This document shows, piece by piece, positions 9,179 to 50,062 of a stretch of DNA of 64,000 nucleotides (within the stretch, counting starts at the first letter, position 1; each line of letters opens with the position of its first letter). The DNA is from Massilia sp. Root418 (lineage in GTDB: Bacteria > Pseudomonadota > Gammaproteobacteria > Burkholderiales > Burkholderiaceae_D), in contig NZ_LMEC01000026.1 of the NCBI RefSeq assembly GCF_001425265.1, positions 373,877 through 437,876 of the forward strand, in the 5' to 3' direction. The notes beneath the pieces were generated by a model. The model searched no databases, was not told the DNA's origin, and was given only the letters and a program-made list of their open reading frames with translations. A program made the translations under genes and the position numbers.

Positions 9179-10048
9179 TTATTTGAATACGACGGTCTTG
9201 GCGCCGTTCTGCAGCACGCGGTGTTCCGTGAACCACTTCACGGCACGCGCCAGCACCACGCACTCGACGTCGCGGCCGATGGCCGACAGCGTGTCCGCGT
9301 CCATCGAATGGTCCACGCGCTCCACGTCCTGCTCGATGATCGGGCCTTCATCCAGGTCGCTGGTGACGAAGTGCGCCGTGGCGCCGATCAGCTTCACGCC
9401 GCGGTGGTGCGCCTGCGCGTAGGGCTTGGCGCCCTTGAAACTGGGCAGGAAGGAATGGTGGATGTTGATGGCCTTGCCCTTCAGGCGCGCGCACAGCTGG
9501 GGCGACAGGATCTGCATGTAGCGCGCCAGCACCACCAGGTCGATCTGGTGGTTGTCCATCAGTTCGATGATGCGCGACTCCTGCGCCAGCTTGGCCTCTT
9601 CCGGCGCGCCGGCCGCCAGCGGCAGGTGGTGGAAGGGAATATTGTAACTGGCCGCCAGCTGGTAGAAGTCCATGTGGTTGGACACGATGGCCGGAATCTC
9701 CACCGGCAGCAGGCCGCTCTTGTAGCGGAACAGCAGGTCGTTCAGGCAGTGGCCGATCTTCGATACCATCAGCATCACGCGCGGCTTGACGTGGGCGTCG
9801 CGCAGCTTCCAGTCCAGCTGCATGGCCTCGCCCAGCTGCGCGAAATCGGCGCGCAGCTGGGCGTCGCTCACACCCGGCTCGTCCAGCGAAAAATGCACGC
9901 GCATGAAAAACAGCCGCGATTCGGCGTCGCCGAACTGCGCAGAGTCTATGATGTTGCAACCGTGTTCGGCCAAAAAGCCCGACACGCGGTGCACGATACC
10001 GCGCTGGTCCAGGCAGGACAGGGTGAGGATGTATTCTGGATGCGTCAT
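9179..10048 (-). CDS. purU: Formyltetrahydrofolate deformylase
   Basis: The 289-residue enzyme hydrolyses 10-formyl-THF to formate and THF, balancing one-carbon pools and feeding formate to PurT. An N-terminal ACT domain (residues 1-80, LSCLDQRGIVHRVSGFLAEHG) is followed by the formyltransferase domain, with the catalytic-loop asparagine and histidine in INIHHSFLPSF and the late aspartate in TSDLDEGPII. Length is normal for PurU. It is divergent from the MDR oxidoreductase gene across about 135 bp. Confidence 0.95.
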   Translation of the reverse strand: MTHPEYILTLSCLDQRGIVHRVSGFLAEHGCNIIDSAQFGDAESRLFFMRVHFSLDEPGVSDAQLRADFAQLGEAMQLDWKLRDAHVKPRVMLMVSKIGHCLNDLLFRYKSGLLPVEIPAIVSNHMDFYQLAASYNIPFHHLPLAAGAPEEAKLAQESRIIELMDNHQIDLVVLARYMQILSPQLCARLKGKAINIHHSFLPSFKGAKPYAQAHHRGVKLIGATAHFVTSDLDEGPIIEQDVERVDHSMDADTLSAIGRDVECVVLARAVKWFTEHRVLQNGAKTVVFK

Positions 10049-10183
10049 GTCAGGAAAAATAGGTTAGACGAATATCAACCCGCTATTGTCGCATGCCTGC
10101 GCGGCAGTTCCATCAAAATGAAAAATAGCACGATCGTTCAATTCTAAGTTATAGTTAAAGAACTCACTATTTGGAGACATAAA

Positions 10184-11200
10184 ATGACCTTGGAGAACCT
10201 GCAATTCCGCTTGGCCAGCCGTCCGGTCGGCATGGCCAAAGCATCCGACTTCCAGCAGGCGGCCGAGCCGCTGCGCGACCTGGCGGACGGTGAAATCACC
10301 GTCAAGACGCTATACCTGTCGCTCGACCCGGCCATGCGCGGCTGGATGAACGACGCCAAGTCCTACATCCGCCCGGTGGCGATCGGCGAAGTGATGCGCG
10401 CCGGCGGCGTGGGCGAAGTGGTGGCGTCCAAGTCGCCCAAGTACGCGGTGGGCGACATCGTGTCCGGCGGCATAGGCGTGCAAGCCTACTGGCAGGGCGC
10501 AGCGGACGACAAGAGCGCTTCCTTCTTCAAGATCGACAGCCGCCTGGCGCCGCTGACCACATGGATGAACACCCTGGGCATGCCCGGCATGACGGCCTAC
10601 TTCGGCCTGCTGGAAGTGGGCCAGCCGAAAGCCGGCGAAACGGTGGTGGTGTCCGGCGCGGCCGGCGCCGTGGGGCAGACCGTGGGCCAGGTGGCCAAGC
10701 AGCTGGGCTGCCGCGTGGTCGGCATTGCCGGCGGCAAAGAGAAATGCGACTTCGTGGTCAATGAGCTCGGCTTCGACGCCTGCATCGACTACAAGACCGG
10801 CTCGGTGCGCGACGGCCTGAAGGAACACTGCCCGCAAGGCGTGGACGTGTACTTCGACAATGTGGGCGGCGACATCCTGGACACCGTGCTGACGCGCATC
10901 AACATGAAGGCGCGCATCGTCATCTGCGGCGCCATCTCGCAGTACAACAACACCACGCCGGTGAAAGGCCCCGCCAACTATCTGTCGCTGCTGGTGAACC
11001 GCGCGCGCATGGAAGGCATGGTGGTGTTCGACTACGCCGACCGCTACCATCTGGGCGTGGCCGCGCTGGCCGGCTGGCTCAAGGAAGGCAAGATCAAAAG
11101 CAAGGAAGACGTGGTGCAGGGACTGGAAAACTTCCCGCAGGCATTGACGATGCTGTTTGAAGGAAAAAATTTCGGCAAACTTGTGCTTAAAGTCGCCTGA
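10184..11200 (+). CDS. Zinc-less MDR NADP-dependent oxidoreductase (CurA / leukotriene B4 dehydrogenase type)
   Basis: The 338-residue protein belongs to the medium-chain dehydrogenase branch that reduces the double bond of alpha,beta-unsaturated carbonyls with NADPH. Seen are LSLDPAMRGWM, the cofactor loop VSGAAGAVGQTVGQ near residue 158, GIAGGKEKC and YFDNVGGDILD, all standard in this group; zinc-ligand cysteines are absent. TTGGAGA precedes the ATG. It stands alone between purU (divergent) and the KGG gene. The physiological substrate is unknown. Confidence 0.9.
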   Translation: MTLENLQFRLASRPVGMAKASDFQQAAEPLRDLADGEITVKTLYLSLDPAMRGWMNDAKSYIRPVAIGEVMRAGGVGEVVASKSPKYAVGDIVSGGIGVQAYWQGAADDKSASFFKIDSRLAPLTTWMNTLGMPGMTAYFGLLEVGQPKAGETVVVSGAAGAVGQTVGQVAKQLGCRVVGIAGGKEKCDFVVNELGFDACIDYKTGSVRDGLKEHCPQGVDVYFDNVGGDILDTVLTRINMKARIVICGAISQYNNTTPVKGPANYLSLLVNRARMEGMVVFDYADRYHLGVAALAGWLKEGKIKSKEDVVQGLENFPQALTMLFEGKNFGKLVLKVA

Positions 11201-11301
11201 ACCGCATTCTTGCGGAACTAAGCGCCATGACACTTCTCTAATTGACGGAGCAGCCAGCTTGGCTGCCCGTCCAACGTTCACTACGATTAAGGAGAAGAGT
11301 C

Positions 11302-11625
11302 ATGGCTACAAATCAAGGCGATCAGACCAAAGGCGGCGCCAGCAAGGGCACGGCAAAACGCGGCTTCGCGGCGATGGATGAAGCGCAGCAGCGCAGCAGC
11401 GCCAGCAAGGGCGGACAGGCCGCGCACCAGAAAGGCACGGCGCATGAATTCGATTCTGAGGAAGCGCGCCGCGCTGGCCAGAAAGGCGGCGAAGCGGTCA
11501 GCCGCGACCGCGAGCACATGGCGGAGATCGGCCGCAAAGGCGGCGAGAGCCGCCAGTCGGCCAACCGTGCGGCGGGCAATCGCCAGGGCGGCAGCGGCAG
11601 TGGCGGCAAAGCGGAAGAGAAGTAA
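11302..11625 (+). CDS. KGG-repeat general stress protein
   Basis: The 107-residue hydrophilic protein is built from repeats of the stress-protein KGG type (SASKGGQAA, GQKGGEAVS, GRKGGESR), as in GsiB/Con-10 proteins associated with desiccation and starvation. It is probably intrinsically disordered and cytoplasmic. The start at 11302 has AAGGAGAAG seven bases upstream; an earlier in-frame start lacks such a site. It lies just before dps, a sensible stationary-phase pairing. Confidence 0.85.
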   Translation: MATNQGDQTKGGASKGTAKRGFAAMDEAQQRSSASKGGQAAHQKGTAHEFDSEEARRAGQKGGEAVSRDREHMAEIGRKGGESRQSANRAAGNRQGGSGSGGKAEEK

Positions 11626-11695
11626 GCAGCCCCCCCCTCTTTTGCCAGAGGCGCGCACTGCACTATAGCGTCCGCCGTGTTTCACCGTGCTGGGC

Positions 11696-11744
11696 TAGAA
11701 TCGGCAAGCCCGCTGGCAAGGGCCAGCGTTTGCTACCGATTCTA
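11696..11744. promoter_or_regulatory. Inverted repeat at a TAGAAT box before dps
   Basis: TAGAATCGG (11696-11704) is repeated in inverted form as CCGATTCTA (11736-11744), with an inner GCTGGC/GCCAGC pair. The left arm begins with a TAGAAT -10-like hexamer. It lies 20-70 bp upstream of the dps start, so it may be an operator or a 5'-leader hairpin. The same GCTAGAATCGG string recurs before the exporter gene at about 12288. Confidence 0.5.
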
Positions 11745-11764
11745 CCCACCATCACGAGGCAAAC

Positions 11765-12268
11765 ATGACTGCAATCTCGAAACAGGGCGGCGACGCGCTG
11801 ACCACTCCCACCGACCTGGGCCCCAAGGCGCGCAAGGAAGTCACGCTGGGCCTGAACCGCCTGCTGGCGGACGCGTTCGCGCTCTACATCAAATGCAAGA
11901 ACTTCCACTGGCACGTGAGCGGCCCGCACTTCCGTTCCTACCACCTGCTGCTGGACGAGCAGGCCACCGCCGTGTATGCCATGCTGGACCCGGTGGCCGA
12001 GCGCGTGCGCAAGCTGGGCGGCAGCACGCTGCGCTCGGTGGGCCACATTGCCGAACTGCAGCGCATCAAGGACAACAACGCCGAGTACGTGGACCCGGTG
12101 GCCATGCTCAACGAACTGCGCGAAGATAACCAGCAGCTGGTGAAGTTCATGCGCGAAGTGCACGACATCTGCGACGAGGACAATGACATTGCCACCGCCA
12201 GCCTGCTAGAAAACTGGATCGACGAAGCGGAACAGCGCATCTGGTTCCTGTTCGAATCGACCCGCTAA
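11765..12268 (+). CDS. dps: Dps-family ferritin-like DNA-protecting protein
   Basis: The 167-residue protein forms dodecamers that oxidise and store iron and bind DNA in starvation. Ferroxidase ligands are visible in NFHWHVSGPHFRSYHLLLDEQ, with His in NFHWH and the Asp/Glu further on. The lysine-containing N-terminus could contact DNA. GAGGCAAAC before the ATG gives a modest ribosome site. It is preceded by the KGG stress gene and an inverted repeat that may regulate it. Confidence 0.93.
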   Translation: MTAISKQGGDALTTPTDLGPKARKEVTLGLNRLLADAFALYIKCKNFHWHVSGPHFRSYHLLLDEQATAVYAMLDPVAERVRKLGGSTLRSVGHIAELQRIKDNNAEYVDPVAMLNELREDNQQLVKFMREVHDICDEDNDIATASLLENWIDEAEQRIWFLFESTR

Positions 12269-12289
12269 AAAATTGTCGGCAAGGCATGC

Positions 12290-12320
12290 TAGAATCGGTC
12301 GAACCTCAACCACAAGGTTC
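12290..12320 (+). promoter_or_regulatory. TGCTAGAAT extended -10 box plus leader hairpin
   Basis: TGCTAGAAT (TAGAAT at 12290-12295) fits an extended -10 promoter element. It is followed by the perfect inverted repeat GAACCT...AGGTTC (12301-12320) nine bases before the exporter start codon. I see no good -35 hexamer. Confidence 0.4.
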
Positions 12321-12328
12321 GCTCCGAC

Positions 12329-39900: not shown

Positions 39901-40000
39901 GCCGGTGTCCGCCAGTGTCCATTAGTGTGCGCTAGTGTTCACTAGTGTTCACTAGTGTTCGCTAGTGTTCGCTAGTGTTCGCTAGTGTTCGCTAGTCCTC
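39901..40000. repeat. 10-bp tandem repeat, about ten units
   Basis: Consecutive 10-base units run from 39901 to 40000. The right-hand ones read GCTAGTGTTC or ACTAGTGTTC; those to the left are progressively degenerate (ATTAGTGTGC, GCCAGTGTCC, GCCGGTGTCC). The last unit, GCTAGTCCTC, supplies the stop codon of the minus-strand gene that begins at 40351. The period is close to one helical turn. There are no spacers, so it is not a CRISPR array. Confidence 0.9.
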
Positions 40001-40351
40001 GGCCCAGGACAGGCTGCGGATCTTGGCCACCTGGCGCTGCGCCAGCCACTTCCACAGCTGCAGCGCGTCGGCCTGCGGCGCGCCGGCCATGCGGCGCGGG
40101 CTGGCCAGGGCGATCTCGCAGTCGCGGTCGGACCATTCGGCAAAGCAGATATCGCCGCCGCTGGCCACTTCCACTTCATACATCAGGCCGTCGTCGTAGC
40201 CGAAGCGCAACACCGCCGTGCCGGGCGCGCCGTCCGGGCCGTGCGCGGCGCCGCTATAGACTTCCGCCAGCGCCGCGGCAAGCTGCGACTCGGTGGGTGC
40301 GGCCACGTCGCGGCCGTCCGGGTGGGTCAGCACTACCCATGCCTGTGTCAT
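39992..40351 (-). CDS. Hypothetical protein
   Basis: The 119-residue acidic protein (MTQAWVVLTHPDGRDVAAPTESQLAAALAEVYSG) has an alpha/beta pattern and no signal peptide or transmembrane helix. VLRFGYDDGLMYEVEVASGGDICFAEWSDRDCEIAL looks like a small beta-sheet domain. I do not recognise a family. The stop codon sits in the last unit of the 10-bp repeat, so repeat changes could alter the C-terminus (LSWAED). Confidence 0.6.
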   Translation of the reverse strand: MTQAWVVLTHPDGRDVAAPTESQLAAALAEVYSGAAHGPDGAPGTAVLRFGYDDGLMYEVEVASGGDICFAEWSDRDCEIALASPRRMAGAPQADALQLWKWLAQRQVAKIRSLSWAED

Positions 40352-40646
40352 TGACGTTCCCCCTTCTCAACTCGAAAACATTCTTCTGGCGAATAATGTA
40401 CCGGCTCGGGCAACTTTGCCATGATCCATGTCTAGCATGGGCCTTGAGGACCGCATATCAGTTTTTTGATTGTAGCAACTATATAAGCAGCCACCAGCGC
40501 GGCACTTAAAATCTTGCACCGTTTGTTGGTCTGCAACATCAGCGCCCCCGTCCCGCTGTTCTTAGGGCGCGCACAGAGCGTTGCGCCCGCCGTATAATAA
40601 AAATCAATCGCCGCTCCCGGTCCTTGCTCAACCATAGGAAAACCCG
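40352..40646. other. Intergenic region with promoter for the c-di-GMP operon
   Basis: This 295-bp divergent region is AT-richer than its surroundings. It contains a perfect TATAAT at 40593-40598, about 49 bp before the signalling operon start, with only weak -35 similarity upstream. AGGAAA precedes the ATG at 40647. I see no small gene or riboswitch. Confidence 0.5.
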
Positions 40647-43205
40647 ATGGAATTGGATGCCATGCCGCAGTTGTCCGCCCGCGCTCTGGCCGCCAGCTCC
40701 AACGGCGTCGTGATTGCCGACGCCCGCCAGCCGTCCTGCCCCATCATCTACGTCAACCCGGCCTTGTGCCGCATGACAGGCTACGCGCAGGACGAGCTGC
40801 TCGGGCGCGACTGCCTGTTCCTGCAGGGCGAGGGGGACGGCCAGGCCGCCGCCCTGCCCGGCCTGCGCGCCGCCATGGCGCGCGGCGAGGAGGTGCATGC
40901 AGTGCAGCAGCAGCGGCGCAAGGACGGCACGCTGTGGTGGAGCGACCTGTTCCTGTCCCCGGTGCCGGGCCAGCAGGGCGAGCTGGCGCACTATATCGGC
41001 ATTGCCACCGACATCACCGGCCTGAAGGAACGCGAGGACCGGCTGGCCTTCCACAGCACCCATGACCAGCTCACCGGCCTGCCCAACCGCACCCTGTTTA
41101 CCGACCGCCTGCAACAGGCGCTGCTGCAGGCGCAGCGCCACGGCGGCCAGCTGGCCCTGCTGTGCGTGGGCATCGACAACTACGCCTTCGTCAACGAAAG
41201 CCTGGGCCACGCGGGCGGCGACCAGCTGCTGGCCGGCGCCGCCGAACGCCTGCGCGCCTGCGTGCGCAGCGAAGACACCGTGGCCCTGCTGGGCGGCAAC
41301 GAGTTCGTCGTCATCCTGGGCGAAGTGAGCGGACCGACCGACGCGATTCCGGTCTGCGAAACCATCTTCGCCAACCTGGCCCCGCCCTTCACGCTGCTGG
41401 GCCAGCAGGTGCACGCCAGCGCCAGCATCGGCGTCGTGCTCAGTCCGCAGGACGGACGCGACGGCGCCACCCTGCTGCGCTACGCCGACATGGCGCTCAC
41501 GCGCGCGCGCGAACTGGGCGGCGCGCACTACCAGTTCTTCGCCTCCGAGATGAACCACCGCACGCTGGAACGCATCGGCATGGAAGCGGCGCTGCGGCTG
41601 GCCGTGTTCCGCGACGAGCTGCAGCTGCGCTACCAGCCGCTGGCCGACCTGCGCAGCGGCGCCGTGGCCAGCCTGGAGGCGCTGGTGCGCTGGCAGCATC
41701 CGGCGCTGGGCCTGATCCCGGCGCAGCGCTTCGTGCCGGTGGCCGAGGAAGCCGGCCTGATCGGGGCGATCGGCAACTGGGTGCTGCGCCGCACCTGCCA
41801 CGACCTGCGTGCCTGGCGCGATGCCGGACTGGCGCCGCTGCGGGTGGCCATCAACATCTCCCCCAAGCAGTGCCGCGACCCGCAGTTTGCCGCCCAGCTG
41901 GCCGCCGCGCTGGACGAGTTCGGCCTGCCGGCCTCGTCCCTGGCGCTGGAGATCACCGAGGCGGCGCTACCGCAGGACACCGCCGCCGGCGCCAGCCAGC
42001 TGCAGCTGCTGGAGCCCTTGCGGGCGCTGGGCGTGGCGCTGGTGCTGGACGATTTCGGCACCGGCTATTCCTCGCTGAGCAACCTGAAGCGCTATCCCTT
42101 CGACGCGGTCAAGATCGATTGCGCCTTCATCCGCGACATCGTCACCGACAGCGGCGACGCCGCGCTGTCGAAAACCATCATCTCCATGGCCCACCTGCTG
42201 GGCATGCAGGTAGTGGCCGAAGGGGTGGAAAGCGAGGCCCAGTGCGACTTCCTGCGCCGCCACAGCTGCGACCTGATCCAGGGCTACTACTTCGCCGCCC
42301 CGCTGGCGCCGGACGAGGTGCAGGCCCTGCTGCGCGAGGACCGCCGCCTGCCGGCGCACTTGCTGCGGGTGCAGAAGCAGCAGCGCACCTTGCTGCTGGT
42401 GGACGATGAGCAGAACATCGTCTCGGCGCTCAAGCGCCTGCTGCGCCGCGACGACTACCAGATCTACACCGCCAACAGCGGCCCGGAAGGGCTGGAGCTG
42501 CTGGCGCGGCACGCGGTGGACGTGATCGTGTCGGACCAGCGCATGCCCGGCATGCTGGGCGCGGACTTCCTGCGCAAGGCCAAGGAACTGTTCCCGGACA
42601 CGGTGCGCATCATGCTCTCGGGCTATACCGAGCTGCAGTCGGTCACGGATGCCGTCAACGAGGGCGCCATCTACAAATTCCTCACCAAGCCGTGGGATGA
42701 CGAGCAGCTGCGCGGCCACATCGCCGAAGCGTTCCGGCTCAAGGAAATCGCCGACGAAAACGAGCGCCTGAACCTGGAGCTGCGCACCGTCAACCACGAG
42801 CTGGCCTCGGCCAACCGCCGCCTGGAGGATGTGCTGCGCCAGAAGCAGCAGCAGATCAGCCGCGACGAGATCAGCCTGAACGTGGCGCGCGAACTGCTGC
42901 AGCACCTGCCGCTGCCGGTGATCGGCATGGACGACCAGGGCATGATCGCCTTCGTCAACGCCGCCGCCGACCACCTGTTCCGGCGCGCCGGCGCCCTGCT
43001 CGGCAACGAAGCATGCGTGGTGCTGCCGGAACTGTTCCCGGCCGGAGACGGCTTCGAGGCCATGGCCTCGGACCACCGCGCGCCCGGCACGCACGAGGCC
43101 GACGTGGACGGCACCCGCTTTGCGGTGGACGTCTATCCCATGGGTGCCAGCTCCACCTCGCGCGGCAGCCTGATCACTCTGAGCCGCAAAGAGGAGACCT
43201 TATGA
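40647..43205 (+). CDS. LOV-like PAS / GGDEF(degenerate) / EAL / REC / PAS signalling protein
   Basis: The 852-residue protein has a LOV-like PAS domain (about 11-125) with the photoadduct-type cysteine Cys56 in GRDCLFLQG. A degenerate GGDEF follows (GGNEF, residues 216-220), then a complete-looking EAL (EALVRW, ITEAAL, DDFGTGYSSL, AEGVESEAQ, QGYYF). A receiver (VIVSDQRMPG, ending FLTKPWDD), a coiled coil and a C-terminal PAS complete it. The expected activity is c-di-GMP hydrolysis under sensory control. Several flavin-contact positions of the LOV domain are changed, so light sensing is uncertain. It is the first gene of the operon. Confidence 0.9.
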   Translation: MELDAMPQLSARALAASSNGVVIADARQPSCPIIYVNPALCRMTGYAQDELLGRDCLFLQGEGDGQAAALPGLRAAMARGEEVHAVQQQRRKDGTLWWSDLFLSPVPGQQGELAHYIGIATDITGLKEREDRLAFHSTHDQLTGLPNRTLFTDRLQQALLQAQRHGGQLALLCVGIDNYAFVNESLGHAGGDQLLAGAAERLRACVRSEDTVALLGGNEFVVILGEVSGPTDAIPVCETIFANLAPPFTLLGQQVHASASIGVVLSPQDGRDGATLLRYADMALTRARELGGAHYQFFASEMNHRTLERIGMEAALRLAVFRDELQLRYQPLADLRSGAVASLEALVRWQHPALGLIPAQRFVPVAEEAGLIGAIGNWVLRRTCHDLRAWRDAGLAPLRVAINISPKQCRDPQFAAQLAAALDEFGLPASSLALEITEAALPQDTAAGASQLQLLEPLRALGVALVLDDFGTGYSSLSNLKRYPFDAVKIDCAFIRDIVTDSGDAALSKTIISMAHLLGMQVVAEGVESEAQCDFLRRHSCDLIQGYYFAAPLAPDEVQALLREDRRLPAHLLRVQKQQRTLLLVDDEQNIVSALKRLLRRDDYQIYTANSGPEGLELLARHAVDVIVSDQRMPGMLGADFLRKAKELFPDTVRIMLSGYTELQSVTDAVNEGAIYKFLTKPWDDEQLRGHIAEAFRLKEIADENERLNLELRTVNHELASANRRLEDVLRQKQQQISRDEISLNVARELLQHLPLPVIGMDDQGMIAFVNAAADHLFRRAGALLGNEACVVLPELFPAGDGFEAMASDHRAPGTHEADVDGTRFAVDVYPMGASSTSRGSLITLSRKEETL

Positions 43206-43519
43206 GCAGCAGCGTGATGGTGGACCTGGACCAGGCCAGCGCCGGCATGGTGCTGGCCGAAGCCCTGCTGGACGCGCACGGCGCCGTACTGCTGCCGCCG
43301 GGCGCCGTGCTCAGCGAGAGCAGCCTGAGCTCGCTGCGCCGGCGCGGCGTGGAGCGCTGCAGCGTGGTCGCGCCCGAGCCCGAAGAAGATCCGGCCGTGG
43401 CCGCGGCGCGCCGCGAGCAGGCCTTGAAGCGGCTGCAGCACCTGTTCCGCCGCAGCGCGCAAACCGAAGCCACCGGCGAGCTGCTGCGCCTGCTGGCCGA
43501 CTACCGCAGCAGGAGCTGA
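43202..43519 (+). CDS. Small protein with the PGMVL-type domain found beside HD-GYP
   Basis: The 105-residue protein starts in the ATGA overlap with the previous gene. It contains VDLDQASAGMVLAEALLDAHGAVLLPPGAVLSESSLSSLRRRGVERCSVV, the short beta-rich module usually fused to HD-GYP or HDOD proteins. The REC/HD-GYP-like protein two genes downstream carries the same module at its C-terminus. A charged helix follows. It is probably an accessory subunit of the HDOD protein encoded two bases after it. Confidence 0.7.
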   Translation: MSSSVMVDLDQASAGMVLAEALLDAHGAVLLPPGAVLSESSLSSLRRRGVERCSVVAPEPEEDPAVAAARREQALKRLQHLFRRSAQTEATGELLRLLADYRSRS

Positions 43520-43521
43520 TC

Positions 43522-44358
43522 ATGCCCACCATGGAAGACGTCGCCCGCCGCGTGCAAGACCTGCCCTCCCTGCCGGTGGTGGTGATGGAGCTGCTGGCCT
43601 GCGTGGGCCAGGAAGGCCTGGACTTGCAGGTGCTGGCCGGCAAGCTCGCGCTGGACCAGTCGCTGTCGGCCAAGACCCTGCGCCTGGCCAATTCCTCCTT
43701 CTACGGCATGCCCTCGCGCGTGACCACCATCCAGCAGGCGGTGGCGGTGCTCGGGGTGCACAACGTGCGCACCCTGGTGACGGCCTGCTCCATCACCGGC
43801 AGCTTCAGCAACGTGGCCGGCAGCGGCTTCGACCTGCCGGGCTTCTGGCGCCACTCGGTGGGCACGGCATCCTGCGCGCGCGCGCTGGCGCGGCCGCTGC
43901 GCCAGAATCCGGACACCGCCTTCATCGCCGGCCTGCTGCACGACCTTGGCACCCTGGTGCTGGCCACCCGCTTCCCGGACGACTACCAGGCCATGGAAGC
44001 CTACCGCCGCCAGCACGATTGCTACCAGGCCGAGGCCGAGCTGGCCGTGTTTGGCTTCGACCACGCCGGCATCGGCGGCGCGCTGGCGGCGCGCTGGCAA
44101 TTCCCGCAGGAGATCCAGCACGCGGTGGCCAGCCACCACGCTGCCGAAGCGCTGGACGCGCCCTCGCTGGCCCTGGCCGTACACCTGGCCGACGCCTTCT
44201 CGCACGCGCTGAACTTGTCGGGCAGCAGCGAGGAACTGGTGCCGGAGGTGGGCTGGCAAGCCTGGCGCGCCGCCGCGCTGAGCGACGCGGTCTGCCTGGA
44301 CGTGTTTGCCGAGTCCGAGCGCACCTTCCACGACCTGAGCCAAATCCTGGTCAACTGA
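43522..44358 (+). CDS. HDOD-domain protein
   Basis: The 278-residue cytoplasmic protein has the HDOD core: LPSLPVVVMELLACVGQEG at the start, LRLANSSFYGMPSRVTTIQQAVAVLGVHNVRTLV, and AGLLHDLGTLVLA. The HD pair is retained in HDLG, although most HDOD proteins have lost phosphohydrolase ligands. HDOD proteins act as signalling scaffolds, often with c-di-GMP systems. The gene starts two bases after the preceding stop, so expression is coupled. Confidence 0.88.
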   Translation: MPTMEDVARRVQDLPSLPVVVMELLACVGQEGLDLQVLAGKLALDQSLSAKTLRLANSSFYGMPSRVTTIQQAVAVLGVHNVRTLVTACSITGSFSNVAGSGFDLPGFWRHSVGTASCARALARPLRQNPDTAFIAGLLHDLGTLVLATRFPDDYQAMEAYRRQHDCYQAEAELAVFGFDHAGIGGALAARWQFPQEIQHAVASHHAAEALDAPSLALAVHLADAFSHALNLSGSSEELVPEVGWQAWRAAALSDAVCLDVFAESERTFHDLSQILVN

Positions 44359-44381
44359 CCGGGCCACCGAACGGAGCCGCC

Positions 44382-45853
<1,472 letters not shown>

Positions 45854-45857
<4 letters not shown>

Positions 45858-47212
45858 CGACCGCCCAGCCTGCCCAGTCCATCGCCGCCGGCCTGGGCGC
45901 CGCCGTGGGAAACCCGGCGCCGCCCTCCACCCTGCTGTGCGTGGACGACGAGCCCAACATCCTGGCCTCGCTGCGCCGCCTGTTCCGCGCCAAGGGCTAC
46001 CGCGTGCTGCTGGCCGAGAGCGGCGCCGAGGGCTTGAACGTGCTGGAAACGGAAAGCGTGGACCTGGTGATCTCCGACATGCGCATGCCGGAAATGGACG
46101 GCGCCCGCTTCCTGGCGCAGGTCAAGCAGCGCTGGCCGGACACGGTGCGCCTGCTGCTGACCGGCTACTCCGACATCCAGTCCATCCAGGACGCCATCAA
46201 TTGCGGCGAGATCTACCGCTACATCACCAAGCCTTGGGACGACAACGACATGCTGCTGGTGGTGCGCCACGCGCTGGAGCGGCGCGCGCTGGAGCAGGAA
46301 AAGCAGCGCCTGGAGACCCTCACCCTGCGCCAGAACGAGGAGCTGAAATCGCTCAACCAGAGCCTGGAGGCCAAGGTCGAGGCGCGCACCCTGCAGCTGC
46401 AGCTGTCGCGCGACGCGGCGGTGGCGGCCAACGAAAAGCTCAAGCAGAACTTCGTCACCACCATCAAGGTGATCTCCAGCATGCTGGAGATGCGCGGCGG
46501 CGCGCTGTCCGGCCACGCGCGCCAGGTGGCCGACCTGGCGCGCAAGATCGCCGTCCGGCTCAAGCTGGACGCGCGCGAGATCCAGGACATCTTCGTGGCC
46601 GGCCTGCTGCACGACCTGGGCAAGATAGGCTATAGCGACGACATGCTGGCCACCCCGCTGACCATGCTGCACGGCGAGGACCTGGGCCTGTTCCGCAAGC
46701 ACCCGCTGCGCGCCGAGCAATTGCTGATGCCGCTGGAGGACTTGCGCGGCAGCGCGGCCATCCTGCGCGCCCAGCTGGAGCGCTTCGACGGCAACGGCTT
46801 CCCGGACGGCCTGGCCGGGCTGGCCATTCCGCTGGGCGCGCGCATCCTGGCGCTGGCGGTGGACTATTACAACCTGCAGCAGGGCGCCATGGTGCAGCGC
46901 CACCTGCGCGCCGACGAAGCGAAGTCGCTGATCATCAACGCCAGCGGCAAGCGCTACGACCCCAACGTGGTGAACGCCTTCCGCCAGGTGGTGGACGGCG
47001 GTGCCGGGGACGAGGCCAACGGGGTGGAAATGCTGTCCGGCGAACTGGTGCCCGGCATGGTGCTGGCGCGCGACCTGGTCAGCCGCGACGGCCTGATGCT
47101 GCTGGCGGCCGACCACGTGCTGGACGCGCGCATGATCCAGCAGGTGCAGGACTTCGAAGCGAAGAGCGAGGGCCGGCTGTCGATCCGGGTGCGGCCGGTG
47201 AAGGGCAAATGA
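45854..47212 (+). CDS. Response regulator with HD-GYP-like output, partly degenerate
   Basis: The 452-residue protein has a receiver (residues 25-145; LVISDMRMPEMDG, ending YITKPWDD), a coiled coil, then an HD-GYP-like domain with His253-Asp254 in HDLGKIGY. The DGNGFPDG loop stands for the GYP loop (GFP at about 315-317). Where functional HD-GYP enzymes have consecutive histidines before this loop, the sequence is ILRAQLERFDG, so metal ligands are missing. A PGMVLARDL module follows. c-di-GMP hydrolysis is therefore doubtful; it could be a regulatory binder. Confidence 0.85.
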
Positions 47213-47236
47213 GGGGCAATCGGGAGGGAAACGAGC

Positions 47237-47761
47237 ATGCGACGCATCCTGCTGCTGGACGATGAACTGAACGTGCTGATGGCGCTGCAGCGCTCCATGC
47301 GCGCCCAGCTCAAGCACCTGGACCTGGACACCGAGATCTTCACCAACCCCTACGAGGCGCTGGAGCGCATCTGCGTGTGCGAGTTCGATGTGGCCATCTC
47401 GGACTACCACATGCCGCAAATGAGCGGCGTGGCCTTCCTGCAGGCGCTCAAGGACGTCGCGCCCAACACGGTGCGCATGATGCTGACCGCCTCCACCGAG
47501 TTCGAAACCGCCATGAGCGCCATCAACGAAGCCCATGTGTTCCGCTTCATCCCCAAGCCCTGGCAGCTGGAAGACCTGCGCGGCAACATCACCGAAGCGC
47601 TGGCCATGCGCGACCGCCTGCTGGCCGACCAAGCCGCGGCGCTGGCGGCGCCGCAGGGCGAAGCGCTCACGCCGCAGGAACTGGAAGCGCGCCGGCTGGA
47701 GGCGGAGGAACCCGGCATCATGCAGGTCAGGCGCGCCCCGGACGGCTCCATCATCCTGTAG
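47237..47761 (+). CDS. Response regulator, receiver domain with short tail
   Basis: The 174-residue protein is a receiver (ILLLDDELNVLMALQR; AISDYHMPQMSG with the phospho-Asp; RFIPKPWQ), followed by a charged helix and a short tail (MQVRRAPDGSIIL). No output domain is seen, so it may act by protein contacts. GGGAGGGAAACGAGC precedes the start. It is the last plus-strand gene of the operon, meeting the paralogous kinase tail-to-tail. Confidence 0.9.
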   Translation: MRRILLLDDELNVLMALQRSMRAQLKHLDLDTEIFTNPYEALERICVCEFDVAISDYHMPQMSGVAFLQALKDVAPNTVRMMLTASTEFETAMSAINEAHVFRFIPKPWQLEDLRGNITEALAMRDRLLADQAAALAAPQGEALTPQELEARRLEAEEPGIMQVRRAPDGSIIL

Positions 47762-47776
47762 CCTTGCCGCCCCGGC

Positions 47777-49060
47777 TCAGCCCTTGGGCGGATGCACCGG
47801 CAGCCGTATCGTGAAGCGGGTGCCCTTGCCCACTTCGGAGGCGACTTCGATGCGCCCGCCGTGCTTGTTCACAATGCCATAGGACAGTGACAGCCCCAGC
47901 CCGGTGCCGCTGCCCACCGGCTTGGTGGTGAAGAAGGGTTCGAAGATGCGGTTCAGGTTTTCCGGCGGGATGCCGCAGCCGCTGTCGCCCACCTCTATCC
48001 AGACCCAGCCGTTCTCGGCCCCGGTACGCAAGGTGATGGTGCCGCGCTCCTTGATGGCGTGGCTGGCGTTGACCAGCAGGTTCATGAACACCTGGTTCAG
48101 CTGCGAGGCCAGGCACTCGACCGGCGGCAGCACGCCGTAGTGCTTCTCCACCGTGCATTTGTACTTGATCTCGTTGGCCACGATGTTGAGCGTGCTGTCC
48201 AGGCCGTGATGCAGGTCGGCCACCTGCCATTCGGTCTCGCCCACGTGCGAGAAATCCTTGAGCGACTGCACGATGTCCTTGACCCGCTTGAGCCCATCCA
48301 TCGACTCCTTCACCAGCTCGGTCACGTCCTCGCGCAGGAACTCCAGGTCGGCCGCGGCGCGCGCGGCGGCAATGCGCCCGGCCAGGGTGGGCGGCAGCGG
48401 CTGCGCGGCCAGCGCCTGGTCATAGGCGTCCACCACCCCGAACAGCGTGGCCACGTAGTTGCGCAAGGTGCCCATATTGGAATTGACGAAGCCCACCGGG
48501 TTGTTGATCTCGTGCGCAATGCCGGCCGCCAGCTGGCCGATGGAGGCCATCTTTTCCGACTGCAGCAACTGCTCGTGCGCCTCGCGCAGCTTGGCGATCA
48601 GGTCGTGCTGGGCCTGCTCCATGTGCTTGCGCACCGTGATGTCGGTGAGCGAGCCGATCACCTCCAGCGGTGCGCCGTGCTCGTCACGGATCAGGCGCAG
48701 GCTGTCGTGCATCCACAGATAGGAACCGTCGGCGATGCGGAAACGGTACTCGTAGGCGCGCTGCCCCTCGGTGAAAATGCTGGCCAGGCTGGAGAAAATG
48801 TTGGGCGCGTCGTCCGGGTGGATGTGGTCGAACCAGAAATTGGGATCGGCCACCATGTCCTCCGGCCGGTAGCCCAGCACGTTGAGTGCGTTGTTGCTGA
48901 CGAAGGTCATCTTGAAGTCGCCGCTGGGCACGGTGCAATAGATGATGGCGGGCGTATTGTCGACCAGGTACTGCAGCCGCACCAGCGGCGACGCGGCCTC
49001 GGCGGACGGCGCCGGCGCTACCGGTGCCTGCGTGAAAAAATCAAAATCCTCGAATTGCAT
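47777..49060 (-). CDS. PAS-domain histidine kinase, paralogue of the operon kinase
   Basis: The 427-residue soluble kinase has a PAS domain (residues 30-150; [28 protein letters not shown]), the acceptor [14 protein letters not shown]-box [16 protein letters not shown] and [16 protein letters not shown]. It is plainly related to the kinase at 44382-45857, especially from the acceptor helix onward. It converges on the response regulator with 15 bp between the stops, so it could phosphorylate the same set of receivers. Confidence 0.9.
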
Positions 49061-49135
49061 GTCGCCACCTTTCCGCCCAGGACATGCTTGAATTATGCGC
49101 TTTTCCTTGCTGGAAAGCGCACTATTCGGCGTCCC

Positions 49136-50062
49136 CTACCAGCTTGCAATCGCGTAGGAACGGCGCGCCGCGCCGGCTGGCGCAGCCACCGGTTCCGGCT
49201 GCAGGGATTCCGGCCCGGCCGGCTGCTGCGGCTGCGGCAGCCAGGCGCGCGGATCGACCCGGTAGTACTTCATGAATTCCTCATAGAGCGCGGCGTGGCG
49301 GTCCGCCATCTGCCAGGGCTTCTCAAAGAAGGTCTCGGTGGCCACGGCGAAGAACTCGGCCGGGCTGGTGGCGCCGTAGTGGTCGAGCACGCTGTCCTGG
49401 CGGCCGTAATAGGCGTCGTAGCGCAGGGTGTCGAAATCGCGCGACAGTACCGCCGACCAGCTGCGGTAGCTGTCCTGGCTGCCCAGGTAGGGCGCGCCAT
49501 TGGTGCTGCCCGATTCGCTGTCGAGCTGGTGCGCGAATTCGTGCAGCACCACGTTGTGGCCGTCGGTCCAGTCGCGGTAGCCGCGCTTGACGTCGGCCCA
49601 GGACAGCACCACGCGGCCGTCGTCCCAGGACTCGCCCAGCAAAGTCTGCTTGTGGGCAGTCACCACGCCGCCCGCGTCCATCTGCTGGCGCGGCACCAGG
49701 AAGGCGCTCGGGTAGACCAGGATGGTGTGCAGGGCGCGGTACACCTTGCTGGGCCGGTTCAGCAGCAGCAAGCAGGCCTGGCCGGCGATGGTGTAGCGCA
49801 TTTCATCGTCCACTTCCAGGCCTTCGCAGCCAACGAATTTCTTCTGGTGCAGGAATTGTTTCACCAGGCGCTGCAGCTGCTGCTGCAGTGCCGGGCCCAT
49901 GCTGGCGTAGACTGGTATGTTGCGCTGCAAGATAGCTGCTGCCGCTGGCGGCAATGGCCGGGCCAGCGCGCGGCGCAGCGTCCAGCGCGGGTACATCAGC
50001 GGCGCGGCCAGGGCCAGCGCCACCACGGGGAGCCACAACAATCCGTCCATAGTGCCATCCAT
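49136..50062 (-). CDS. mtfA: MtfA-type zinc peptidase (M90)
   Basis: The 308-residue protein has an N-terminal hydrophobic helix (GLLWLPVVALALAAPLMYP) and the zinc site HEFAHQLDSESG near residue 170, as in MtfA, the aminopeptidase that interacts with the glucose repressor Mlc in E. coli. ATETFFEKP supplies the later glutamate. The C-terminus adds a Pro/Ala tail. MtfA of E. coli is 265 residues and lacks the membrane helix, so this is a longer anchored variant. Two ATGs (50062, 50050) could start it. Confidence 0.88.
   Translation of the reverse strand: MDGTMDGLLWLPVVALALAAPLMYPRWTLRRALARPLPPAAAAILQRNIPVYASMGPALQQQLQRLVKQFLHQKKFVGCEGLEVDDEMRYTIAGQACLLLLNRPSKVYRALHTILVYPSAFLVPRQQMDAGGVVTAHKQTLLGESWDDGRVVLSWADVKRGYRDWTDGHNVVLHEFAHQLDSESGSTNGAPYLGSQDSYRSWSAVLSRDFDTLRYDAYYGRQDSVLDHYGATSPAEFFAVATETFFEKPWQMADRHAALYEEFMKYYRVDPRAWLPQPQQPAGPESLQPEPVAAPAGAARRSYAIASW

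What the first reader, a model, noticed from the sequence alone, without database searches (positions are those of the whole stretch)
40647..49060. Compact c-di-GMP signalling operon with degenerate enzymes and an opposing kinase paralogue
Six plus-strand genes overlap or nearly touch: LOV-like/GGNEF/EAL/REC/PAS, a 105-aa module, HDOD, kinase, REC/HD-GYP-like and REC. A paralogous kinase faces the last one. All three receivers end in a KPW motif. The mixture of two kinases, three receivers and at least two degenerate catalytic domains in one tight locus suggests a dedicated sensory unit. I do not recognise it as a described system.
Basis: partly seen in the sequence, partly recalled or inferred. 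Interest (0 to 1): 0.6.

Follow-up and report, generated by a model that had tools for sequence, protein, structure and literature searches.

The report
Hno/NosR-type cyclic-di-GMP signalling gene cluster
A tightly packed, widely conserved set of bacterial signalling genes appears to let two sensor kinases control one enzyme that destroys the messenger molecule c-di-GMP, partly through a companion protein that looks like an enzyme but has lost catalytic residues, much like a nitric-oxide circuit known from Vibrio and Shewanella.

Summary
Six plus-strand genes (40647-47761) overlap by 4 nt or lie 2-24 nt apart, and a same-family kinase (47777-49060, minus) converges on them. "Not a described system" is only partly right. 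Gene E (receiver + HD-GYP) is a NosR-family protein (572.8 bits, cut-off 400). An E homologue on a Vibrio plasmid overlaps a receiver-EAL gene, 5 kb from an H-NOX/kinase pair, resembling V. cholerae VC1086 (HnoB) and its non-catalytic HD-GYP neighbour VC1087. Here the EAL phosphodiesterase keeps its catalytic residues, the GGDEF motif is degenerate, and E's HHE is QLE in 23 of 23 window-type copies, yet E is under purifying selection. FIST (NosP) and H-NOX were not found in the genome, so the signal probably differs. Best reading: an Hno-like branched switch, two PAS kinases, three receivers, one EAL phosphodiesterase, with E as a catalytically dead regulator. The 105-aa protein resembles E's C-terminal domain. 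New variant of a known kind.

The parts
40647..43205 (+).
   Evidence: Pfam; catalytic-residue checks; REC D/D/S/K present
43202..43519 (+). B: 105-aa module, homologous to the C-terminal domain of E; HDOD is its neighbour in 49 of 50 B hits
   Evidence: no Pfam hit; weak match to NosR positions 367-409; hhalign probability 97.8% and HDOD adjacency; AlphaFold mean pLDDT 81.9
43522..44358 (+). C: HDOD protein, 278 aa
   Evidence: PF08668 205.4 bits
44382..45857 (+). D: PAS histidine kinase, 491 aa, HEINN motif
   Evidence: Pfam (scanned from 44358, in frame); NF038348 best hit, below its cut-off; alignments
45854..47212 (+). E: REC-coil-HD-GYP-C-terminal domain, NosR family, 452 aa; HD kept, HHE replaced by QLE
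   Evidence: NF053512 572.8 bits, cut-off 400; motif alignments
47237..47761 (+). F: single receiver with about 50-aa tail, 174 aa
   Evidence: PF00072 62.9 bits; D/D/T/K and KPW present
47777..49060 (-). G: convergent PAS_3 histidine kinase, 427 aa, the member with the lowest dN/dS
   Evidence: Pfam; 74-97% identity in L040-L061; dN/dS 0.055 and 0.068 to L040 and L041

Best explanation
An Hno-like branched two-component circuit for c-di-GMP. Two PAS kinases (D and G) autophosphorylate and pass phosphate to the related receivers of A, E and F. A is the only member predicted to turn over c-di-GMP: its EAL phosphodiesterase is gated by its own receiver, while its degenerate GGDEF serves at most as a regulatory domain. 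E is a catalytically dead HD-GYP response regulator that, depending on phosphorylation, restrains or releases A (or another EAL protein), as HnoD does to HnoB. F is a third branch or phosphate sink. The HDOD protein C with its companion B gives a second, protein-binding output. Shown: domains, residue states, gene order, family membership of E. Inferred: phosphotransfer, E-to-A control, direction of the effect, the roles of F, C and B, and the signal, which is probably not NO through a known sensor.
For: Same kind of inventory as the S. oneidensis network in PMC6335343 (passage): two kinases, an EAL regulator, a degenerate HD-GYP regulator that suppresses it, a third regulator. E is NosR family. 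A Vibrio coralliilyticus plasmid carries REC-HDOD, REC, CheX, a kinase 56% identical to G over 289 aa, a receiver-EAL gene overlapping a degenerate NosR-family gene, and an H-NOX/kinase pair 5 kb on. PMC4441509 (passage) puts VC1086 (EAL, intact) and VC1087 (HD-GYP, non-catalytic) in one predicted 8-gene operon; PMC4212101 (passages) found VC1087 inactive in vivo and in vitro. Ten EAL catalytic positions are unchanged in 22 of 22 A homologues with an EAL (L040-L057, L059-L061, L076); an eleventh, the D of KID, is E in two. E has QLE in 23 of 23 window-type copies with dN/dS 0.21 (L040) and 0.26 (L041). Gene order in the 22 fetched loci; EAL+REC near E in 31 of 57, HDOD in 33 of 57, a kinase in 56 of 57 order-level loci.
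Against: E's degeneracy shows no association with an EAL+REC neighbour across the family (paired test, median p 1, but low power), so E-to-A control has no support from co-evolution. A's domain order (EAL then REC) is the reverse of the Vibrio REC-EAL protein. F has no DNA-binding domain, unlike HnoC, and is missing in 7 of 22 window-type loci. In L058 the A homologue lacks the EAL domain altogether. 42 of 57 order-level E proteins keep HD and HHE, so in most of that sample E may be an active enzyme. No phosphotransfer or c-di-GMP data exist here.
Confidence: 0.55

Rival explanations
1. The main output is not c-di-GMP but protein-protein control by the HDOD protein C and module B (for example of motility or surface behaviour), with A and E only tuning it.
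For: B-HDOD is a tight pair: HDOD is the neighbour in 49 of 50 B hits, and a second B-HDOD pair without A or E sits elsewhere in the same genome (L039). HDOD is near E in 33 of 57 order-level loci.
Against: A keeps its EAL catalytic residues in 22 of 22 homologues with an EAL. B has the highest dN/dS of the seven genes to L040, L041 and L061 (0.41, 0.59, 0.90), which fits an accessory better than the core.
Confidence: 0.2
2. It is a NosP or H-NOX nitric-oxide circuit whose sensor lies elsewhere in the genome.
For: E is NosR family; in Burkholderia NosP-NosK control NO responses and NosK phosphorylates NosR (PMC12570481, abstract and passages); H-NOX lies near the Vibrio version.
Against: No FIST match and no H-NOX match in the genome as held (26 contigs, completeness given as 100); FIST in 5 of 22 relatives with the cluster, never near it; FIST within 3 kb of the NosR gene in 3 of 57 genomes of the order sample. 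D and G have their own PAS domains. An NO sensor of another family is not excluded.
Confidence: 0.07
3. E is still a phosphodiesterase, for c-di-GMP or another dinucleotide, despite the QLE motif.
For: HD, the KHP histidine and the late aspartate are kept in the window copy; purifying selection.
Against: Two positions that are histidines in solved HD-GYP enzymes are Q and L (alignments); the HD motif itself is also lost in 5 of 23 window-type copies; the non-catalytic V. cholerae protein VC1087 was inactive in vitro (PMC4212101).
Confidence: 0.08
4. Blue light sensed by A's N-terminal LOV-like domain is the main input.
For: The LOV cysteine is present; of 6 relatives with this domain one has GRNCRFLQ, three MGRNCRLLQ, and five have FWN.
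Against: Window copy lacks the flavin-contacting N, N and Q (recalled list); 13 of 22 window-type relatives have A without the N-terminal PAS-GGDEF part and one more has neither this part nor EAL.
Confidence: 0.04

Closest known systems
Vibrio cholerae VC1080-VC1087 operon: HnoB (VC1086) and the HD-GYP protein VC1087
   Same: EAL regulator beside a non-catalytic REC-HD-GYP regulator in one predicted operon (PMC4441509, PMC4212101, passages; VC1086 is called HnoB in PMC8738867). The V. coralliilyticus plasmid counterpart is over the NosR-family cut-off and its kinase is 56% identical to G over 289 aa.
   Different: The plasmid EAL protein is REC-GGDEF(remnant)-EAL, not PAS-GGDEF-EAL-REC; that cluster has CheX and Hpt and H-NOX nearby; the window has B and no NO sensor found. 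V. cholerae sequences themselves were not compared.
Shewanella oneidensis Hno network (HnoK, HnoS, HnoB, HnoC, HnoD)
   Same: Two kinases, three regulators, one active EAL, one degenerate HD-GYP (PMC6335343 passage; HnoD as inhibitor of HnoB also in PMC8846402 passage).
   Different: H-NOX input; HnoC is a transcription factor; here no H-NOX and F is a bare receiver.
Burkholderia NosP-NosK-NosR
   Same: E is in the NCBIfam family named after NosR; NosR of B. pseudomallei is also degenerate, HG-GTP, and its kinase has HEINN (PMC12570481 passages).
   Different: NosP not found in this genome; kinases here carry PAS domains; EAL, HDOD, B and F are extra.

Membership tests
NosR family (NCBIfam NF053512) | score over curated cut-off | tested here: met
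   E 572.8 bits, cut-off 400, full length 1-422
NosP-NosK-NosR system | FIST-domain NosP encoded with the kinase | tested here: not met
   no FIST match in the genome
NosP-NosK-NosR system | kinase without a recognised sensory domain (as reported for B. pseudomallei NosK) | tested here: not met
   D and G have PAS domains
Hno network | H-NOX sensor | tested here: not met
   no HNOB match in the genome
Hno network | receiver-EAL phosphodiesterase with intact residues | tested here: met
   EAL, N, E, DDFGTG, K, E, Q all present in A, though REC lies after EAL
Hno network | receiver + degenerate HD-GYP regulator | tested here: met
   E: HD kept, HHE to QLE
Hno network | HnoC-type transcription-factor regulator | tested here: not met
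   F has REC only
Hno network | HnoD-like protein inhibits the EAL enzyme | not testable with these tools
   needs biochemistry
Active GGDEF diguanylate cyclase | GG[DE]EF active site | tested here: not met
   GGNEF in A; 1 of 9 relatives has GGDEF
LOV photoreceptor | cysteine plus flavin-contacting N, N, Q | tested here: not met
   cysteine only; residue list recalled

The most novel reading that the evidence does not exclude
A general beta/gammaproteobacterial c-di-GMP hub, older and wider than its nitric-oxide versions, in which the HD-GYP regulator has repeatedly changed between enzyme and pseudoenzyme while the rest of the cassette stayed, and in which a spare copy of its C-terminal domain (B) became a dedicated partner of HDOD proteins. 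In the window-type Oxalobacteraceae branch the pseudoenzyme form is fixed and controls the co-encoded EAL enzyme.
Probability: 0.3. Interest if true: 0.55.

Novelty: new variant of a known kind. Interest (0 to 1): 0.4.

Why it matters
It suggests that the NosP and H-NOX circuits may be special cases of a much wider module whose usual inputs are PAS kinases, and it gives a natural series (intact, QLE and other degenerate forms of one protein in similar gene contexts) in which to test how a c-di-GMP enzyme turns into a regulator.

Tried and rejected
Promoter and terminator scan of 40000-49600: no sigma-70-like site (shuffles 0.6), one terminator-like site inside gene G (shuffles 4.1); uninformative. 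Rfam: nothing over the gathering scores in the 64-kb window. Idea that E degenerates where an EAL-REC partner is present: not supported, with low power (raw counts degenerate with partner 39, without 31; intact with 54, without 58); the same for HDOD. Idea that D and G are a recent duplication: rejected. Structure: B model mean pLDDT 81.9, pTM 0.50; Foldseek gave no hit at E <= 0.001, the top ones being MoeA-like proteins and RNA polymerase beta/beta' chains, in line with weak sequence hits to RNA polymerase (best E 7.4e-5); too weak for a claim. E model pTM 0.45, not used. Plate and Marletta 2012 was not held. Literature: ten searches of the open PMC library; only named Massilia, Duganella and Janthinobacterium, and it listed 2 papers, neither titled on this cluster; several of the other lists were capped (for example 12 of 6,416), and subscription papers were not searched, so that the cluster is undescribed is not proved. 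The downstream-receiver count (5 of 22 genus, 30 of 57 order) used too tight a window on stop-to-stop frames; the corrected counts are (15 of 22, 32 of 57). dN/dS to L061 is higher (E 0.48, C 0.84, B 0.90) and less reliable, as dS looks compressed; some frames used there for B and E in L040 and L061 are longer than the gene.
Full report
What is there. Six plus-strand genes lie at 40647-47761 and one minus-strand gene converges on them at 47777-49060. A-B and D-E overlap by 4 nt, B-C are 2 nt apart, C-D 23 nt, E-F 24 nt. The three receivers keep the aspartates, the S/T and the K, and share KPW. KPW is invariant in 80 of 80 aligned E-family receivers, so it marks the subfamily.

Which parts can work. 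Ten EAL catalytic positions (roles recalled) are unchanged in A and in 22 of 22 homologues that have the domain beside a receiver; an eleventh, the D of KID, is E in two. A's GGDEF motif is GGNEF, and 1 of 9 relatives that have the domain and a receiver in one frame shows GGDEF. The N-terminal PAS has the LOV cysteine but not the flavin-contacting N, N and Q; of 6 relatives with this domain one has GRNCRFLQ, three MGRNCRLLQ, and five FWN. Of the 22 fetched window-type relatives, 13 have A as EAL-REC-PASc only, 8 have GGDEF too, and one (L058) has REC-PASc without EAL (the 23 include L076). E keeps HD but has QLE where solved HD-GYP enzymes have HHE.

Conservation. B was sought in 148 relatives; 80 have a match at E <= 0.01. 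I fetched 40 loci chosen by B. In 22 of them (L040-L061: 21 same-genus genomes and G078 of the same family) the order A-B-C-D-E-(F)-<G is kept; L076 (G041) is cut by a contig end; the other 17 are the window genome's second B-HDOD locus (L039), other B-HDOD pairs, and the more distant L067 and L068. So the window-type cluster is seen in 21 of the 73 same-genus genomes, plus a fragment in one; genomes with the cluster but without a strong B were not sought. Flanking genes (a small gene upstream, two genes downstream) are often kept too, so part of the synteny is inherited chromosome context. F is present in 15 of 22.

The wider family. E scores 572.8 bits against NCBIfam NF053512 (NosR family, cut-off 400) and is the only one of 121 matches in its genome over the cut-off. 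Over the cut-off are 57 of 300 genomes of the order sample and 35 of 369 of the class sample, the window genome counted in both. In the 57 order-level loci other than the window (L067 and L085-L140, from 56 genomes), within 8 kb and on E's strand: at least one kinase in 56, two or more in 35, HDOD in 33, EAL+REC in one frame in 31, REC-PASc in 28, B in 10; a bare receiver after E in 32. 24 of the 57 have neither HDOD nor REC-PASc, so the full set is not general. As a rough yardstick the window genome has 19 HDOD matches in 7.27 Mb, weak ones and E itself included, about 0.04 per 17 kb, so HDOD beside E is far above chance. Class-level loci (35, one of them below the cut-off) show shorter versions, often a kinase with E and sometimes REC-PASc and HDOD.

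E as a pseudoenzyme. 23 of 23 window-type E proteins (the window and L040-L061) have QLE; 18 keep HD, 5 do not. Of the 57 order-level loci 42 keep both HD and HHE and 15 do not; of the 35 class-level loci 26 do and 9 do not. In 182 non-identical E sequences from all samples (193 before removal of duplicates; sampled by similarity, not at random), 112 have HD and HHE and 70 do not, in many forms. On a FastTree tree without the motif columns the fewest changes are 20, but only 8 independent pairs rest on well-supported branches, and the direction of change is not inferred. QLE needs 2 changes. Against two close relatives E has dN/dS of 0.21 and 0.26, like A (0.23, 0.32) and D (0.25, 0.28), so it is maintained. 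Degeneracy shows no association with an EAL-REC neighbour or with HDOD (low power): a result against the simplest form of my reading.

Kinases. D and G are 52% identical over 327 aa. On a tree of 147 kinase cores (FastTree, midpoint root) each forms one clade of 23, support 0.95 and 0.99, and they are not sisters: the smallest clade holding both has 111 tips. G has the lowest dN/dS of the set (0.055 and 0.068 to L040 and L041).

Module B. Its profile matches E's C-terminal domain (hhalign probability 97.8%). HDOD is the neighbour in 49 of 50 B hits; the exception lies at a contig end. Many of those loci were chosen by B, which does not bias what lies beside it, but many are orthologous and not independent.

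Link to known systems. On Vibrio coralliilyticus plasmid p319, found by E (34% identity, 95% covered), the order is REC-HDOD, REC, CheX, kinase, REC-EAL, E homologue, Hpt, then a converging kinase, with an H-NOX gene and kinase about 5 kb on. That E homologue is over the NosR cut-off (466 bits), has HE and HQDE-type letters in place of HD and HHE, and its upstream kinase is 56% identical to G over 289 aa. Of the three plasmid neighbourhoods read, the other two do not show the cassette: Pseudoalteromonas has E's homologue beside a divergent kinase, Burkholderia stagnalis beside one kinase. PMC4441509 (passage) describes VC1080-VC1087 as a predicted operon with VC1086 (EAL, intact) and VC1087 (HD-GYP without catalytic residues); PMC4212101 (passages) found VC1087 inactive; PMC8738867 (passages) calls VC1086 HnoB and describes HnoD as an inhibitor that phosphorylation deactivates; PMC6335343 (passage) gives the two-kinase, three-regulator scheme in Shewanella. 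PMC12570481 (abstract and passages) shows NosK phosphorylating a degenerate NosR in Burkholderia. That VC1087 and HnoD belong to E's family is an inference from the V. coralliilyticus counterpart; their sequences were not compared.

No known NO sensor found. FIST and H-NOX have no match in the window genome. FIST occurs in 5 of 22 relatives with the cluster, on another contig or more than 1 Mb away. In the order sample FIST is in 46 of 57 genomes (the window genome counted) but within 3 kb of the NosR gene in 3 (G159, G187, G321), and 6 kb away in G381.

Verdict. The cluster is real, conserved and coherent. It works, most likely, like the Hno circuit, but I do not file it as a member of the Hno or NosP systems because their sensors were looked for and not found. 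It is a new variant of a known kind.

Noticed in passing
L039 (own genome C11:92001-112000), about 9434-12323: A second B-HDOD pair beside a divergent kinase, without A or E; weaker B matches of this kind occur in most same-genus genomes, and HDOD adjacency was seen in the 14 such loci fetched from L062-L066, L069-L075, L077 and L078.
   Followed up: partly
43202-43519: B's profile and model weakly resemble RNA polymerase beta/beta' and MoeA domains (best sequence E 7.4e-5; no Foldseek hit at E <= 0.001).
   Followed up: partly
40647-41550 and A homologues in L040-L061: The N-terminal LOV/PAS-GGDEF half of A comes and goes among close relatives, while REC-PASc stays and EAL is kept in 21 of 22.
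   Followed up: partly
L259 (Vibrio coralliilyticus plasmid p319, 8555-27844): A plasmid carries a REC-HDOD, CheX, kinase, REC-EAL, degenerate NosR-family and Hpt cluster close to an H-NOX/kinase pair.
   Followed up: partly
L067, 6205-8719: The A homologue is interrupted between its GGDEF and EAL parts; sequencing error or a broken gene, not resolved.
   Followed up: no
L092, 7021-14063: Four related kinases in a row upstream of one NosR-family gene, hinting at input integration by kinase number.
   Followed up: no
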